IMG/VR virus record: IMGVR_UViG_3300031576_000184
Coordinates: 1-37,255 of that record
Strand: one strand, 5' to 3'
Length of the DNA: 37,255 nt
Source of the DNA: a virus
The notes beneath the pieces were generated by a model, which was given only the letters and a program-made list of their open reading frames with translations, searched no databases and was not told where the DNA came from. Position numbers and translations under genes: made by a program. Shown in pieces: positions 3,537 to 37,255 of the stretch. How positions within the stretch are numbered: position 1 is the first letter of the stretch; every line of letters begins with the position of its first letter.

Positions 3537-3754
3537 CTCATCCACAAGCATTCCGTCTTGCTATTATCGCCCTGCGCGTTCAAATTCACCGCCTGGCCTA
3601 CGAAGCCAACCTGTATCGCGTCTACCGCGTCCCCTACGCCCAGAAGAGCGCTCAACAATATCAGGCGTATCAACAAGCGCTGGAAATTCTGCAAGAAGAG
3701 ATCAGGGGAGACGCGATGCGGAAAAAGCGTAATCGCCATGCCAAGAAAGTCTAA
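3533..3754 (+). CDS. Small helical hypothetical protein
   Basis: A 73-aa protein that starts at an ATGA overlap with the methyltransferase. It is rich in Tyr, Gln and Arg, with a likely amphipathic helix (Y-Q-A-Y-Q-Q-A-L-E-I-L-Q-E-E) and a strongly basic tail. It overlaps the next gene's start by 17 nt. A small DNA- or protein-binding helper is possible, but no family was recognised. Confidence 0.55.
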   Translation: MTHPQAFRLAIIALRVQIHRLAYEANLYRVYRVPYAQKSAQQYQAYQQALEILQEEIRGDAMRKKRNRHAKKV

Positions 3755-4136
3755 GGGCGGCCCCTATCCCCCAGATTGGCCCCAGATCGCCAGGCGGATC
3801 AAGGACGAAGCCGGCTGGAAATGTGTGCGCTGTGAGCATTCCAATCAGCCCTCGCAAGGTCGGACTCTCACCGTTCATCACTTCGACATGAACCCCTCCC
3901 ATAATGTCTGGTGGAACCTGGGTGCACTTTGCCAGGCGTGCCACCTGCGTATACAGGCAAAGGTGATTATGGAGCGCCCATGGATGTTTGAACACAGCGA
4001 CTGGTTCAAATCCTATGTGGCTGGCTATTACGCCGCCCAACATGGATTCCCCGACGACCGCGAATATGTCCTGGCGCATTTGGATGAGTTGATTGCGCTG
4101 GGCCAGGGAAGAAAACACAATGACTTATCAGACTAA
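3738..4136 (+). CDS. HNH endonuclease
   Basis: A 132-aa protein starting at ATG 3738. It has C29-x2-C32, then V-H-H-F-D at 46-50, N60 in W-N-L-G, and C65-x2-C68-H, the zinc-braced beta-beta-alpha-metal HNH fold. Such proteins nick or cut DNA in phage packaging or as homing enzymes. It is not beside the terminase, so a packaging role is less obvious. It overlaps the next gene by 17 nt. Confidence 0.85.
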   Translation: MPRKSKGGPYPPDWPQIARRIKDEAGWKCVRCEHSNQPSQGRTLTVHHFDMNPSHNVWWNLGALCQACHLRIQAKVIMERPWMFEHSDWFKSYVAGYYAAQHGFPDDREYVLAHLDELIALGQGRKHNDLSD

Positions 4137-5241: not shown

Positions 5242-6162
5242 ATGCAAATCATTGACCTCTTCTCAGGCATCGGCGGGTTGTCGTACGGCTTCCAGCAAGC
5301 GGGACACACCCTCCTGGCCGCCTACGACGACGACCCCACCGCCGTCGAATACTACAACCGCAACCTGGGCGCCCATGCCCGCGTCGCTGACATTCGCGAA
5401 CTAGACGCAGCTGCGCTGCCCGACGCAGACGCCATCATCGGAAGCCCGCCGTGCCAGCCGTTCAGCAACGGAAGCCGCAACTACAAAACCAAAGCCCAGA
5501 AGGGCCCGACCGACGAGCGCAACCTCATCCCGCACTTTGTTCGCCTGGTCCTCGCCAGGAGACCCACCTTCTTTCTCATGGAGAACGTAGTCGGCTTGCT
5601 CACCTACACCGGCTTCCTGGCCGAACAACTCCGGCTGCTCTTCCAAGCCGGTTACTTCCCGGTGATCACCGTGCTCAACGCCGCCCATTACGGCGTGCCC
5701 CAGGATCGCAAGCGTGTCTTCATCGCAGGCTACCGCGACCGATTACCCCTGTGGCCCGCGCCGACGCACAACGGCCCCGACGTCGTCACCACCCGCCGCG
5801 CACTCGGCGAGCTATTCCAAAACCAGCCAGGCCGCCCACTCCCGCCCTACCTCAAGCACTTTACAGGGCGCGAGCTGCTTATCGACACCCAAAACCGCTC
5901 TCAGCTCGCCGGCGGCACACGCCACTACCATGCTCGCTCATTAGACACACCCGCTTATACCGTCACCGCCAGCGAGCGCCACGGCTCCAAGCGCGCCATC
6001 CTGGGCAATCTCGTCGTCAGCCTGAGCGTCAAACACAACCGCATCTTGCAGACCTTCCCGCCCGACTGGCAACTACCGGCCAACCCGAAGGAAGCCTTTC
6101 GCCTCATCGGAAACGCCGTGCCTCCATTGTTCGCCAATCACATCGCAAGGGCCATCACGTGA
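5242..6162 (+). CDS. C5-cytosine DNA methyltransferase
   Basis: A 306-aa protein with the ordered motifs of Dcm/HhaI-type enzymes: D-L-F-S-G-I-G-G at 5-12 (SAM binding), G-S-P-P-C-Q-P-F with catalytic C71, M-E-N-V around 113-116, Q-D-R-K-R-V-F near 153, and a C-terminal R-L-I-G-N-A-V-P-P. The target recognition region lies between Q-D-R-K-R and the last motif; its specificity cannot be read. It probably marks phage DNA against host restriction. The stop overlaps the lysozyme start (GTGA at 6159-6162), coupling methyltransferase and lysin translation. Confidence 0.93.
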   Translation: MQIIDLFSGIGGLSYGFQQAGHTLLAAYDDDPTAVEYYNRNLGAHARVADIRELDAAALPDADAIIGSPPCQPFSNGSRNYKTKAQKGPTDERNLIPHFVRLVLARRPTFFLMENVVGLLTYTGFLAEQLRLLFQAGYFPVITVLNAAHYGVPQDRKRVFIAGYRDRLPLWPAPTHNGPDVVTTRRALGELFQNQPGRPLPPYLKHFTGRELLIDTQNRSQLAGGTRHYHARSLDTPAYTVTASERHGSKRAILGNLVVSLSVKHNRILQTFPPDWQLPANPKEAFRLIGNAVPPLFANHIARAIT

Positions 6163-6806
6163 CCACCATCGCGCCCGCCCCCTCCGCCCCCGGCATTGAC
6201 GTCTCCCGCCACAACGGCCTCATCCACTGGCCGCGCGTCAAGCGCCTTGGCATCCAATTCGCTTATGTTCGCGCCACGCTGGGCGTGGGCGCGCAGGGTC
6301 GCGATTCACAGTTCGATGCCAACTGGCAGGGCGCCCACGGCGCCGACATCCCCTTTGTCGGCGCCTATCACTATCTCACCCTGGCTCACAGCGGGGAGAG
6401 TCAAGCGCAGAATTTCATCTCCAATTTTAGAAACGTCCCCGCGGGCGCGGGCGCGGGGAATCTCCCCCCGGTCGTAGACGTCGAGCCGCGCTATAACGAA
6501 ATGCTCGACGACGTCCAGCGCCAGGCATTCACCGCCCAGCTACACCGATGGCTCCAATTCGTCGAGAGCGAGACCCTGATGCGCCCTGCGATCTACACCA
6601 GTTTTTCTGCCTGGCCGGCCATGACCACGTTGCCCCCCTGGGCCGCTAACTATCCCCTGTGGGTCGCCCACTACACCGATGACCCTCAGCCCCGTCTCCC
6701 CGCTGCCTGGCAGGATTATCTCATCTGGCAGTGGACCGACAAAGGCCGTCTGTATGGAATTGCCGCAGGGAATGTTGATTTGAACCTGTGGCGGGGATTA
6801 GGGTAA
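6159..6806 (+). CDS. GH25 muramidase (endolysin)
   Basis: A 215-aa protein from GTG 6159, which overlaps the previous stop. It is a GH25 (Chalaropsis-type) lysozyme: G-I-D-V-S-R-H-N-G at 12-20, F-A-Y-V-R-A-T near 34-40, Y-H-Y-L near 70, and the catalytic V-V-D-V-E-P with D107 and E109. The C-terminus W-Q-W-T-D ... V-D-L-N closes the barrel. There is no signal peptide, so a holin is needed for export; holin-like genes are on the opposite strand near 28 kb. It is the more convincing of the two lysins in this operon. Confidence 0.92.
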   Translation: MTTIAPAPSAPGIDVSRHNGLIHWPRVKRLGIQFAYVRATLGVGAQGRDSQFDANWQGAHGADIPFVGAYHYLTLAHSGESQAQNFISNFRNVPAGAGAGNLPPVVDVEPRYNEMLDDVQRQAFTAQLHRWLQFVESETLMRPAIYTSFSAWPAMTTLPPWAANYPLWVAHYTDDPQPRLPAAWQDYLIWQWTDKGRLYGIAAGNVDLNLWRGLG

Positions 6807-6816
6807 TCCTGTTACC
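6799..6816 (+). other. Small hairpin over the lysozyme stop codon
   Basis: GGGTAA, a 5-nt loop and TTACCC form a perfect 6-bp stem that includes the stop codon. No T-tract follows, so a factor-independent terminator is doubtful. Confidence 0.35.
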
Positions 6817-6822
6817 CTGTGA

Positions 6823-6851
6823 TGGACAAACCTCGAGAAATATCCTATCAT
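6823..6851 (+). promoter_or_regulatory. Sigma-70-like promoter upstream of the pseudoknot RNA
   Basis: TGGACA (6823-6828), a 17-bp spacer and TATCAT (6846-6851) each match the consensus at five of six positions. The expected start, seven bases downstream, is G6858, exactly the first base of stem A of the interleaved-stem RNA. Confidence 0.6.
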
Positions 6852-6857
6852 ACGGGC

Positions 6858-6970
6858 GTCGAGGGTCAATGGGCGTTTTAGCTTTCGCCTACAAATATCC
6901 GTCGTCGTGCGCAGCGTCCATTGGCCCTCGACAAGCCTGTGGCGAACGCACGGCGGCGGATTTTTGTGTG
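6858..6970 (+). ncRNA. Putative small RNA / leader with two interleaved long stems (A-B-A'-B')
   Basis: Stem A (6858-6875) pairs with A' (6915-6932): 18 bp with two G-U pairs and no mismatch. Stem B (6891-6911) pairs with B' (6947-6967): 20 of 21 positions, with two G-U pairs and one U-U. The order A, 15 nt, B, 3 nt, A', 14 nt, B' is either an H-type pseudoknot or two mutually exclusive hairpins. Four G-U pairs that would be mismatches in DNA point to selection on RNA. It begins at the predicted +1 of the upstream promoter and ends just before the HNH gene. It could be a switchable 5' leader or a free small RNA. Confidence 0.6.
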
Positions 6971-6974
6971 TCCT

Positions 6975-7391
6975 ATGAAAAAAAAGGGGATAGCCCTCAT
7001 CCATCCAGATGAAATTCTAGAGAAAGATAGACGAAAATGCCGATATTGTGAACATCCACTCACTCTGAGAATCATGGTGATAGATCATGTCATTCCCAAA
7101 ACTAAAGGGGGAACAGATGATGAGAGTAATCTTGCAGCGAGTTGTTTTATGTGCAATTCCCAAAAGGGCAGTAAGACCTTAGAGGAATGGGATAAGTCTC
7201 GCAGGACTTATCAATATGAGACGGATAAGGACTTTGAAAAAAATTTGAAGGAGTGGGTCGCGTTAGAAAAGGAGCGTATCCGTCTGGCTGGCGATCCGCG
7301 TCAACAAGAGGTATTGAAATGGTGTCGGGACGGTTTGGAACGAGCTAAGCGGCGTCAAGGTCGTCGCGTTAGCACAGGTAACACATGCTAG
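6975..7391 (+). CDS. HNH endonuclease preceded by structured RNA
   Basis: A 138-aa protein. I chose ATG 6975 because an earlier in-frame start would read through the structured RNA. The N-terminal HNH domain has C22-x2-C25, I-D-H-V-I-P with H38, G-G-T-D-D-E-S-N-L with N52, and C57-x2-C60-N. The tail is charged and helical. DNA from ~6975 to ~7290 is much AT-richer than its neighbours, which with the separate promoter suggests a transferred unit. It lacks RuvC and the IscB N-terminal motif, so it is not a typical IscB. Confidence 0.85.
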   Translation: MKKKGIALIHPDEILEKDRRKCRYCEHPLTLRIMVIDHVIPKTKGGTDDESNLAASCFMCNSQKGSKTLEEWDKSRRTYQYETDKDFEKNLKEWVALEKERIRLAGDPRQQEVLKWCRDGLERAKRRQGRRVSTGNTC

Positions 7392-7401
7392 GTGGAATGG
7401 A

Positions 7402-7707
7402 TTGGATAGAAGCGGCCTAGCGACCCGGATTCTGTTGTGGCGGTGGGCAGAGAGCGGTTCTTGGGACAAAGTGGGGCATGAGCTTGGTTTTAATCGCGGC
7501 TACTTGTGCGCGGTAGCCCATGGTCTCAGACCGGTTAGCAAGAGGTTGAGAATCGCGCTTGACCTGCATTACGGGGGTGTATCCGATATGCCGGCTTCCC
7601 TGCTCGCCTGGAAAATCAAAAATCGGCAGCCCCTCATGGCCCCGACTGGTGCAGAAATGCACCCCGCGAATGCGCGCCATCAGACGTCAAAGAACGAGCG
7701 CGTCTGA
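7402..7707 (+). CDS. Small helix-turn-helix protein
   Basis: A 101-aa protein with a TTG start behind GGTGGA at 7391-7396. Residues ~14-50 (W-D-K-V-G-H-E-L-G-F-N-R-G-Y-L ... R-P-V-S-K-R-L-R-I-A-L) fit a lambda-repressor-like HTH with a Gly-turn and recognition helix, so it may bind DNA. It is the last + gene and overlaps the convergent structural gene by 28 nt. That leaves no room for a terminator between the two opposing operons. Confidence 0.55.
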   Translation: MDRSGLATRILLWRWAESGSWDKVGHELGFNRGYLCAVAHGLRPVSKRLRIALDLHYGGVSDMPASLLAWKIKNRQPLMAPTGAEMHPANARHQTSKNERV

Positions 7708-8396
7708 TGGAACACGGATTGGAGCAATGCGTCTGGCAAATCGTCGGCGCAAATAAAAAACGGCGCAGCACGACCAGACAGAAATGCGCCGCCCGTGTCC
7801 CGATTGCGGCCTGCGTCGAAAGCCGTCGCATTATCGCTGAGTGAGGCTAGCGTACTCACATTCACGGTCTCGACACCATCCACCCAGATGTTGGCTTGGG
7901 AGCTGGGAGTGAACACGCCCAGGACCAAATGCCAGGCGCTTTCGCTGACCGCGCTGCCACTATAGGTTGTGACCGTCGTGCCATCGCTGAGACTGAGACG
8001 AGCTATTCCCGCATTGACATCTAACAGGTACGAGCGTGTGGCCGCGGTCGCGCCCCACTTGCTCATCAAGGCGCGCTGCGCGGTCGTCTCATCATCCCAA
8101 AACCACCCACCAAAGGTCAACGCCCCTGTGATAGAAAGGTCCACTTCGTCTGCTCGCGTTAGCTCGCTGCTCGAGCCATTGAAACCGCCGAACGCCACGA
8201 AGTCATTATAGATATTGGCGGTGACGCCCGTGCTAGTCAGAGTGCGTCCTTGGCTGGACAAGTCGTACACGTCCCCGCCCGCATTGCGGCTCGACATAGG
8301 CCAGAAGCCGCGCAATCCTGGCAGCGCCAGGAATACACTGATGAGATCGAACGGTGTACGGGTGAGGCGATCAGGCGGCAGCGAAAACATAATCAC
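7680..8396 (-). CDS. LamG/concanavalin-like virion protein (putative receptor-binding)
   Basis: A 238-aa protein. After ~40 residues it shows a LamG-type jelly roll: Y-N-D-F-V-A-F-G-G-F-N-G-S-S-S-E-L-T, then L-T-F-G-G-W-F-W-D-D, S-A-W-H-L-V-L-G-V-F and I-W-V-D-G-V. These domains bind glycans and are common at phage tail tips. It is the last gene of the late operon, where tail fibre genes usually lie. GTG 8396 overlaps the preceding stop; ATG 8390 is an equally good start. Confidence 0.75.
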   Translation of the reverse strand: MIMFSLPPDRLTRTPFDLISVFLALPGLRGFWPMSSRNAGGDVYDLSSQGRTLTSTGVTANIYNDFVAFGGFNGSSSELTRADEVDLSITGALTFGGWFWDDETTAQRALMSKWGATAATRSYLLDVNAGIARLSLSDGTTVTTYSGSAVSESAWHLVLGVFTPSSQANIWVDGVETVNVSTLASLSDNATAFDAGRNRDTGGAFLSGRAAPFFICADDLPDALLQSVFHQTRSFFDV

Positions 8397-36471: not shown

Positions 36472-36799
36472 CTTGAAACCGACGCTACGGGAAATGCTCA
36501 GCCTGGCGCGAGCGGAAGTGGGCGTGCCACAGCGCCGCACGCTGAGCGTCAATGGCGGCCTGGTGGTGGAAGTCAACCAGCAGAAAAATGGCGAAGTTTT
36601 CCTGGCGCTGTGCCAACCGAACCAGACCCCCACCGTGACCCAATGGCGTGACGTGCTCTACGCTTGGCCGGAACCCATTCCAGAAATCGGCCCCGTGGCC
36701 GTCACGCGCAAAGAGGGGCGCGTTTATCGCTCGGTGCTGCATTGGCCGCGGCCGGCAGTAGCAGGTCCAGGTGTGCACTGCGATCAAATGACGCGCTAG
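36464..36799 (+). CDS. Small phage protein of unknown function, intact copy
   Basis: A 111-aa protein, the complete form of the truncated gene at 2-316. It starts M-P-N-L-K-P-T-L-R-E-M-L-S-L-A-R-A-E and shares the Q-W-R-D-V-L-Y-A-W-P-E-P core, but has its own C-terminal ~12 residues. It overlaps the preceding gene by 8 nt. No function recognised. Confidence 0.7.
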   Translation: MPNLKPTLREMLSLARAEVGVPQRRTLSVNGGLVVEVNQQKNGEVFLALCQPNQTPTVTQWRDVLYAWPEPIPEIGPVAVTRKEGRVYRSVLHWPRPAVAGPGVHCDQMTR

Positions 36800-36820
36800 C
36801 GCGGGCCTATAACCCGCTAG

Positions 36821-37178
36821 GCGAAATCAAGTCGACAATTTTATATGGGGGAGGGGGAATGAGAGACCCGGAGATGCGCGCCGAATCAGTAAGCCCGCGC
36901 CGGCCTGAGTATCCCAGACCTAGAGAAACCTGTCCTGTGGTTAGGGGGGGCCAGGGCGGTGCGGCGATGCGGTAATAGCAGACCTGGGCGCGTTTGAGTC
37001 GCACCGAATGAGCGTTCGCTGGAAACGATACCGGCGGCCTCGGGTGGAGTTCCCTGTAAAGACTCCCGGCTCCGAAGCATAAAGACTCTCCGCTTAGATA
37101 GGGAGAGTCCGCCTACACCTCACCAAAGCAGAAAGAGACGAGCAGGAAAAGGAACGAAACGAGACGCGAAGCGGGAAG
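36821..37178 (+). ncRNA. Putative structured RNA, right copy
   Basis: Stems correspond to the left copy: 36957-36965 with 36998-37006, 37017-37022 with 37031-37036, and 37084-37091 with 37102-37109. Compared with the left copy there is a compensatory A-U to C-G change, G-C to G-U and C-G to U-G changes, and a coordinated loss of one base on each side of the last stem. The conserved loop GCGGTAAYAGCAGACCTGGG is nearly unchanged. Confidence 0.6.
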
Positions 37179-37255
37179 ATGAAGGATAAAGGAACACTGC
37201 GAGGCATCGCATTTGGCGACCGGCCACCGACACGAGGTCAGCGCGTCCCCTACTG
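37179..37255 (+). CDS. Zinc-ribbon protein, truncated second copy
   Basis: The first 25 codons match the gene at 742-990 (M-K-D-K-G-T-L-R-G-I-A-F-G-D-R); the rest lies beyond the window. Confidence 0.7.
   Translation, partial: MKDKGTLRGIAFGDRPPTRGQRVPY

What the first reader, a model, noticed from the sequence alone, without database searches (positions are those of the whole stretch)
6823..6974. Promoter driving a two-stem interleaved (pseudoknot or switch) RNA next to an HNH gene
Seen: an 18-bp A/A' stem and a 20-of-21 B/B' stem in the order A-B-A'-B', with four G-U pairs. A TGGACA-17-TATCAT promoter places +1 on the first base of stem A. An AT-rich HNH gene follows. The two stems either interlock or exclude each other, which suits a regulatory switch or a compact functional RNA. 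HEARO/IscB loci are a known precedent for RNA beside HNH genes, but this HNH lacks RuvC and the IscB N-terminal motif. A new RNA-HNH unit is a real possibility (inference).
Basis: partly seen in the sequence, partly recalled or inferred. Interest (0 to 1): 0.8.

Follow-up and report, generated by a model that had tools for sequence, protein, structure and literature searches.

The report
Interleaved-hairpin RNA leader of phage nuclease
An uncultivated phage carries, just in front of a small DNA-cutting (HNH) gene, a short stretch whose RNA would form two long hairpins that cross each other; it is real and unusual but has no detectable relatives, and it most likely controls when the nuclease gene is expressed rather than being a new RNA-guided nuclease.

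Summary
At 6858-6967 two long stems lie in the order A-B-A'-B' (18/18 and 20/21 pairs, four G-U, no A-C on the + strand). They are the two strongest + strand stems in the window, and the strongest interleaved pair in about 1.5 Mb of comparison DNA. A good sigma-70-like promoter puts +1 on the first base of stem A. B' ends 7 nt before the ATG of a 138-aa HNH gene (6975-7391). The A-folded and B-folded RNAs have equal predicted energy (-53.7, -54.0 kcal/mol). 'RNA-HNH mobile unit' is not supported: no relative of the RNA was found in phages, plasmids, viral-contig searches or 400 bacterial genomes; HNH genes up to about 50% identical lack the stems; the two nearest phage relatives lack both RNA and HNH; Rfam, including HEARO, gives nothing. 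The HNH domain is of Cas9/IscB type but stands alone, without RuvC or PLMP. Best reading (0.42): a cis-acting, bistable or pseudoknotted 5' leader limiting expression of an acquired free-standing HNH endonuclease, working like the leader hairpins of T4 I-TevI, segB and Aeh1 mobE but of different topology. Main rival: terminator hairpins whose interleaving is incidental. With one sequence, covariation cannot be tested.

The parts
6823..6851 (+). sigma-70-like promoter TGGACA-17-TATCAT; +1 expected near 6858
   Evidence: consensus scan, 10 of 12 matches, best of six in 5.2-8.4 kb; not mapped
6858..6875 (+). stem A, 5' arm (pairs with 6915-6932)
   Evidence: duplex -33.9 kcal/mol for 18 bp, -36.6 for 6858-6877/6913-6932
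6915..6932 (+). stem A, 3' arm (A')
6852..6857 (+). 6-bp extension of stem A lying upstream of the expected +1 (pairs with 6935-6940 across a 2-nt bulge); present only in read-through transcripts
   Evidence: duplex -45.7 kcal/mol with the extension; read from sequence
6891..6911 (+). stem B, 5' arm (pairs with 6947-6967); lies in the loop of stem A
   Evidence: duplex -32.1 kcal/mol
6947..6967 (+). stem B, 3' arm (B'); its GC-rich part is followed by ATTTTTGTGTG (terminator-like); ends 7 nt before the HNH ATG
6881..6889 (+). third interleaved match C (GCTTTCGCC with GGCGAACGC at 6941-6949)
   Evidence: duplex -10.5 kcal/mol; may be chance
6822..6881 (+). possible 19-codon leader ORF (MDKPREISYHTGVEGQWAF) overlapping the 5' arm of stem A, in frame with the HNH gene; may be chance
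   Evidence: read from sequence
6975..7391 (+). HNH endonuclease gene, 138 aa, Cas9/IscB-type HNH domain with four Cys and a C-terminal helical tail
   Evidence: Pfam PF01844 1.3e-12; NCBIfam IscB 2e-15, below cut-off; Cas9 HNH in PDB; model pLDDT about 90 over residues 11-70

Best explanation
The block 6823-6974 is the promoter and structured 5' leader of a free-standing phage HNH endonuclease gene, and it controls expression of that gene in cis. Shown by computation: the two long interleaved stems, the promoter whose +1 falls on stem A, the B' arm ending 7 nt before the ATG, and two nested folds of equal energy. Inferred: the leader makes HNH synthesis depend on which promoter made the transcript and on whether the leader is being translated or transcribed quickly. 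Stem A forms first as the RNA emerges and encloses B, so B' cannot easily make the long B/B' helix. B/B', whose GC-rich part ends in a run of U and which covers positions -28 to -8 of the HNH start, would end transcription or block ribosome entry. The two stems share no bases, so A/A' and part of B/B' may also coexist as a pseudoknot. The purpose would be the one known for T4-type homing endonucleases: little endonuclease from read-through transcripts, more from the gene's own promoter at the right time.
For: Stems far beyond chance. G-U pairs favour the coding strand. Promoter on the same strand with +1 at stem A. A-fold -53.7 and B-fold -54.0 kcal/mol; stem A dominates from position 6926 on, before B' exists. 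B' is adjacent to the HNH ATG. Constrained folding leaves B' (6947-6967) 25% unpaired in the A state and 7% in the B state. Precedent: RNA structures sequester the RBS of I-TevI, I-TevII, I-TevIII, segB and mobE, and for I-TevI a late promoter makes transcripts too short to form the structure; seg43(25) has a very stable hairpin just upstream of its RBS (PMC2988022). Three of six HNH-type genes examined in contigs sharing this phage's capsid family have strong stems just upstream of or over the start (L110 -96 to -11, L123 -87 to -20, L114 -33 to +28; the others are L085, L101 and the window's own second HNH), although those HNH proteins are another subfamily and L110 and L123 are close relatives of each other.
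Against: No relative of the leader, so no covariation. In the folding model the last 15 nt before the ATG are paired in both states (86% and 83%), so a clean on/off of ribosome access is not reproduced. There is no good Shine-Dalgarno at the ATG to sequester. The 35-nt loop of B is long for an intrinsic terminator, and the terminator scan, limited to loops of 3-8, does not list it on the + strand. HNH homologues elsewhere lack strong upstream stems. About 9% of all genes in the capsid-related contigs also have a strong stem upstream.
Confidence: 0.42

Rival explanations
1. Ordinary intergenic terminator hairpins: B/B' with its U-run ends the rightward methylase-lysozyme transcript (and A/A' adds stability or protects the 3' end); the interleaving has no function and the HNH gene simply landed downstream.
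For: The position just after the lysozyme gene and close to the convergent junction with the leftward tail genes is where terminators sit. The GC-rich part of B' is followed by ATTTTTGTGTG. Long intergenic hairpins are common in capsid-related contigs: 9% of genes have a stem of score 29 or more within 130 nt upstream.
Against: B has a 35-nt loop; two crossing near-perfect stems are not needed for termination; such strong stems are rare in the window itself; a promoter lies exactly at the foot of stem A.
Confidence: 0.3
2. DNA-level element: the palindromic arms are a binding, cutting or recombination site (for example operator or homing-site remnant of the HNH protein next door, acting on its own promoter as I-TevI does), and RNA pairing is secondary.
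For: Autorepression through an operator resembling the homing site and overlapping the promoter is known for I-TevI (PMC2988022); stem A abuts the promoter.
Against: The departures from perfect palindromes are four G-U and no A-C on the + strand, as expected for RNA pairing (1 in 16 by chance); arms of 18 and 21 bp with 35-39 nt between them are not typical operators; no second copy of the arms in the window.
Confidence: 0.13
3. A separate small noncoding RNA (about 115 nt, own promoter and terminator) acting in trans, its link to the HNH gene incidental.
For: Own promoter-like site, 5' end in a stable stem, U-run at the 3' side.
Against: No long antisense match to another phage gene (longest unrelated match 13 nt); no Rfam match even at E 10; no homologue.
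Confidence: 0.09
4. A new RNA-HNH unit in which the HNH protein binds this RNA and uses it for targeting or activity (HEARO/IscB-like or unlike).
For: The HNH domain is closest by profile and fold to those of IscB and Cas9; RNA before gene as in OMEGA loci.
Against: No RuvC, PLMP, bridge helix or other recognised RNA-binding domain in 138 aa; no HEARO match; no second instance; both arms of each stem are internal, leaving no obvious guide; HNH homologues have no such RNA.
Confidence: 0.06

Closest known systems
Leader hairpins of T4-type homing endonuclease genes (I-TevI, I-TevII, I-TevIII, segB; mobE of Aeh1; seg43(25) of Aeromonas phage 25)
   Same: phage endonuclease gene, stable RNA structure in the leader next to the start codon, own promoter at or inside the structure so that short and read-through transcripts can fold differently
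   Different: two crossing stems rather than one hairpin; no good Shine-Dalgarno to sequester; the promoter transcript still contains both complete stems here; several of those endonucleases are GIY-YIG rather than HNH
HEARO / OMEGA (IscB with omega RNA, Rfam RF02033)
   Same: structured RNA directly upstream of a gene for a Cas9/IscB-type HNH domain
   Different: no RuvC or PLMP, 138 aa only, RNA does not match the HEARO model, no mobile-element ends seen
Ribosome- or ligand-dependent attenuators (alternative 1-2/3-4 type hairpins; from general knowledge)
   Same: mutually exclusive long stems with a terminator-like last stem; a possible 19-codon ORF overlaps the first arm
   Different: the competing stems share no bases, so exclusion is topological, not by strand exchange

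Membership tests
HEARO / OMEGA IscB system | HNH domain of IscB type | tested here: inconclusive
   best NCBIfam match is IscB, 2e-15, residues 12-110, but 56.7 bits against a cut-off of 175
HEARO / OMEGA IscB system | RuvC nuclease parts and PLMP motif in the same protein | tested here: not met
   138-aa protein, only HNH families in Pfam; no room upstream in frame (stops at 6804-6806 and 6879-6881)
HEARO / OMEGA IscB system | omega RNA matching Rfam HEARO upstream of the gene | tested here: not met
   cmscan of 6780-7050 with permissive filters: no match up to E 10; 6000-7800: two irrelevant matches. Caveat: only 65% of HEARO nuclease 5' UTRs had an Rfam hit (PMC9755519)
T4-type regulated homing endonuclease leader | stable RNA structure directly upstream of the endonuclease start | tested here: met
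T4-type regulated homing endonuclease leader | structure sequesters a Shine-Dalgarno in read-through transcripts, promoter transcript escapes it | tested here: not met
   no good Shine-Dalgarno at the ATG; both stems remain complete in the promoter transcript; the last 15 nt are paired in both folds
T4-type regulated homing endonuclease leader | protein is a site-specific homing endonuclease | not testable with these tools
   HNH fold only; no empty allele close enough to define an insertion site
Group I intron or other known ribozyme / riboswitch | match to an Rfam covariance model | tested here: not met
Intrinsic terminator | GC-rich stem directly followed by a U-run | tested here: inconclusive
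   B/B' fits except for its 35-nt loop; not listed by the short-loop scan

The most novel reading that the evidence does not exclude
A compact phage RNA with an unusually long-stemmed H-type pseudoknot (18 and 21 bp) that works together with a minimal, RuvC-less Cas9/IscB-type HNH nuclease as a new RNA-protein unit.
Probability: 0.06. Interest if true: 0.85.

Novelty: new variant of a known kind. Interest (0 to 1): 0.36.

Why it matters
If the leader really switches between two equally stable, topologically exclusive helices, it would be a compact natural riboregulator of a phage nuclease with a design not described for T4-type endonuclease leaders in the review read here (PMC2988022). It would give a simple reporter-testable case of regulation by topological exclusion rather than strand exchange. 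If it is only a terminator, it is ordinary.

Tried and rejected
HEARO/IscB, group I intron and all other Rfam families: no match. DNA homologues of the RNA in phages and plasmids: none, only 32-34-nt chance pieces at E 0.5. Exact pattern of stem A in viral contigs: seven stretches whose flanks do not match the element; several are coding (the pattern reads V-E-G-Q-W in frame), so chance. RNA-HNH block in 400 genomes of the phylum of an Anaerolineae bin: none (the host is a guess and there was no positive control). Related phages through terminase and lysozyme: none close. Through capsid: L069 (76%) and L070 (72%), whose whole records lack RNA, HNH and lysozyme; in L070's record a cytosine-methylase gene overlaps a homologue of the window's HTH gene with nothing between them. 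A search by that HTH protein found only the same record. Antisense targets in the window: none. The idea that all HNH genes of this kind have leader stems: rejected. Repeat-built interleaved hairpins of related phages as the same kind of thing: rejected, most arms there are short tandem repeats. Retron HNH (TIGR02646): only 21.5 bits against a cut-off of 52.

Full report
What is there. The window is a whole virus record of 37,255 bases. Rightward genes at 0.7-7.7 kb (including N6-adenine and C5-cytosine methylases and a GH25 lysozyme ending at 6806) meet leftward structural genes near 7.7 kb. Between the lysozyme and a small HTH-like gene (7402-7707) lie the reported element and an HNH gene. 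The HNH start codon is ATG 6975-6977; the ORF is 6975-7391, 138 aa.

The stems. Stem A 6858-6875/6915-6932 pairs over 18 of 18 positions and stem B 6891-6911/6947-6967 over 20 of 21, with four G-U pairs in all. They rank first and second among + strand stems in the window. The shuffled region never gave a stem above 30 or an interleaved pair above 20, against 37 and 35 here. On the opposite strand the interleaved pair falls to 25 because G-U becomes A-C, which favours pairing of the + strand RNA; with four cases this is suggestive only. A third match C/C' makes the order A-C-B-A'-C'-B'. Stem A gains 6 bp in transcripts that start upstream.

Promoter and folding. TGGACA-17-TATCAT is the best promoter-like site in 5.2-8.4 kb and puts +1 at about 6858. 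Fold of 6858-6990 with A forced: -53.7; with B forced: -54.0 kcal/mol. Other 5' and 3' ends keep the two within about 4 kcal/mol, with the sign varying. Stem A is complete once 6932 is transcribed; B needs 6967. A and B share no bases, so neither displaces the other by strand exchange; they exclude each other by topology or coexist as an H-type pseudoknot with linkers of 15, 3 and 14 nt. By length those linkers could span helices of 21 and 18 bp, but forming both fully needs threading of about two helical turns. This is inference; no 3D modelling of the RNA was done. A test of a simple ribosome-access model was negative: 6960-6974 is mostly paired in both folds, though B' as a whole is 25% unpaired in the A state and 7% in the B state.

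The protein. HNH, Pfam PF01844. The closest named profiles and folds are IscB and Cas9 HNH domains and the Gme HNH nicking enzyme. The predicted model is confident over the HNH core and shows two further helices with lower confidence. There is no RuvC or PLMP. The gene is AT-rich (45% G+C against 61%), consistent with recent acquisition; the RNA segment itself is 58%.

Relatives. HNH proteins up to about 50% identical over the domain occur in many phages, plasmids and genomes; none examined has the interleaved stems, and most have no strong stem upstream. Exceptions in contigs sharing the capsid family are L110, L123 and L114, in which a long hairpin lies just before or over the start of an HNH gene. 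This fits leader structures on phage HNH genes in general, but with a background of 9% for all genes in those contigs it is weak and was seen after the fact. The two nearest phage relatives lack the whole block, so it is an accessory of this phage. The tools warn that records very near the window may be left out, so closer relatives may exist.

Conclusion. The most likely function is cis-regulation of the HNH gene, by analogy with T4-type endonuclease leaders (PMC2988022); its own steps (which fold is on, termination or ribosome block) are not shown. Terminator hairpins without switching are the main rival. Membership in HEARO/OMEGA is rejected on tested features. Nothing excludes a new RNA-HNH unit, but little beyond adjacency and the type of HNH domain supports it.

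Noticed in passing
470-566: Match to Rfam EGFOA RNA (RF02955), 39.2 bits against a gathering score of 37.7; a diverged second copy appears to lie in the repeat near the right end. Function of EGFOA not found in the papers held.
   Followed up: partly
1-818 and 36472-37255: The two ends of the record are an 86%-identical direct repeat of about 0.8 kb, as if the assembly ran past the joint of a circular or terminally redundant genome into a strain variant, or a real diverged duplication.
   Followed up: partly
L083 5393-5528, L126 2593-2725, L124 4721-4798, L120 10700-10842, L111 16787-16916, L097 3913-4051: Contigs sharing the capsid family carry long intergenic palindromes whose arms are built of degenerate 7-8 nt tandem repeats, with a different unit in most phages.
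   Followed up: partly
L127, L116, L119, L151 and others, upstream of genes: Recurrent near-perfect hairpins of the type CGTTTAGC...GCTAAACG upstream of genes in capsid-related contigs, shared between different phages.
   Followed up: no
L110 788-873, L123 1904-1971, L114 3840-3901: Other HNH-type genes with a strong hairpin directly before or over the start codon.
   Followed up: partly
3558-4136: A second, different HNH-type gene (ZorE-like HNH domain); no interleaved stems upstream.
   Followed up: no
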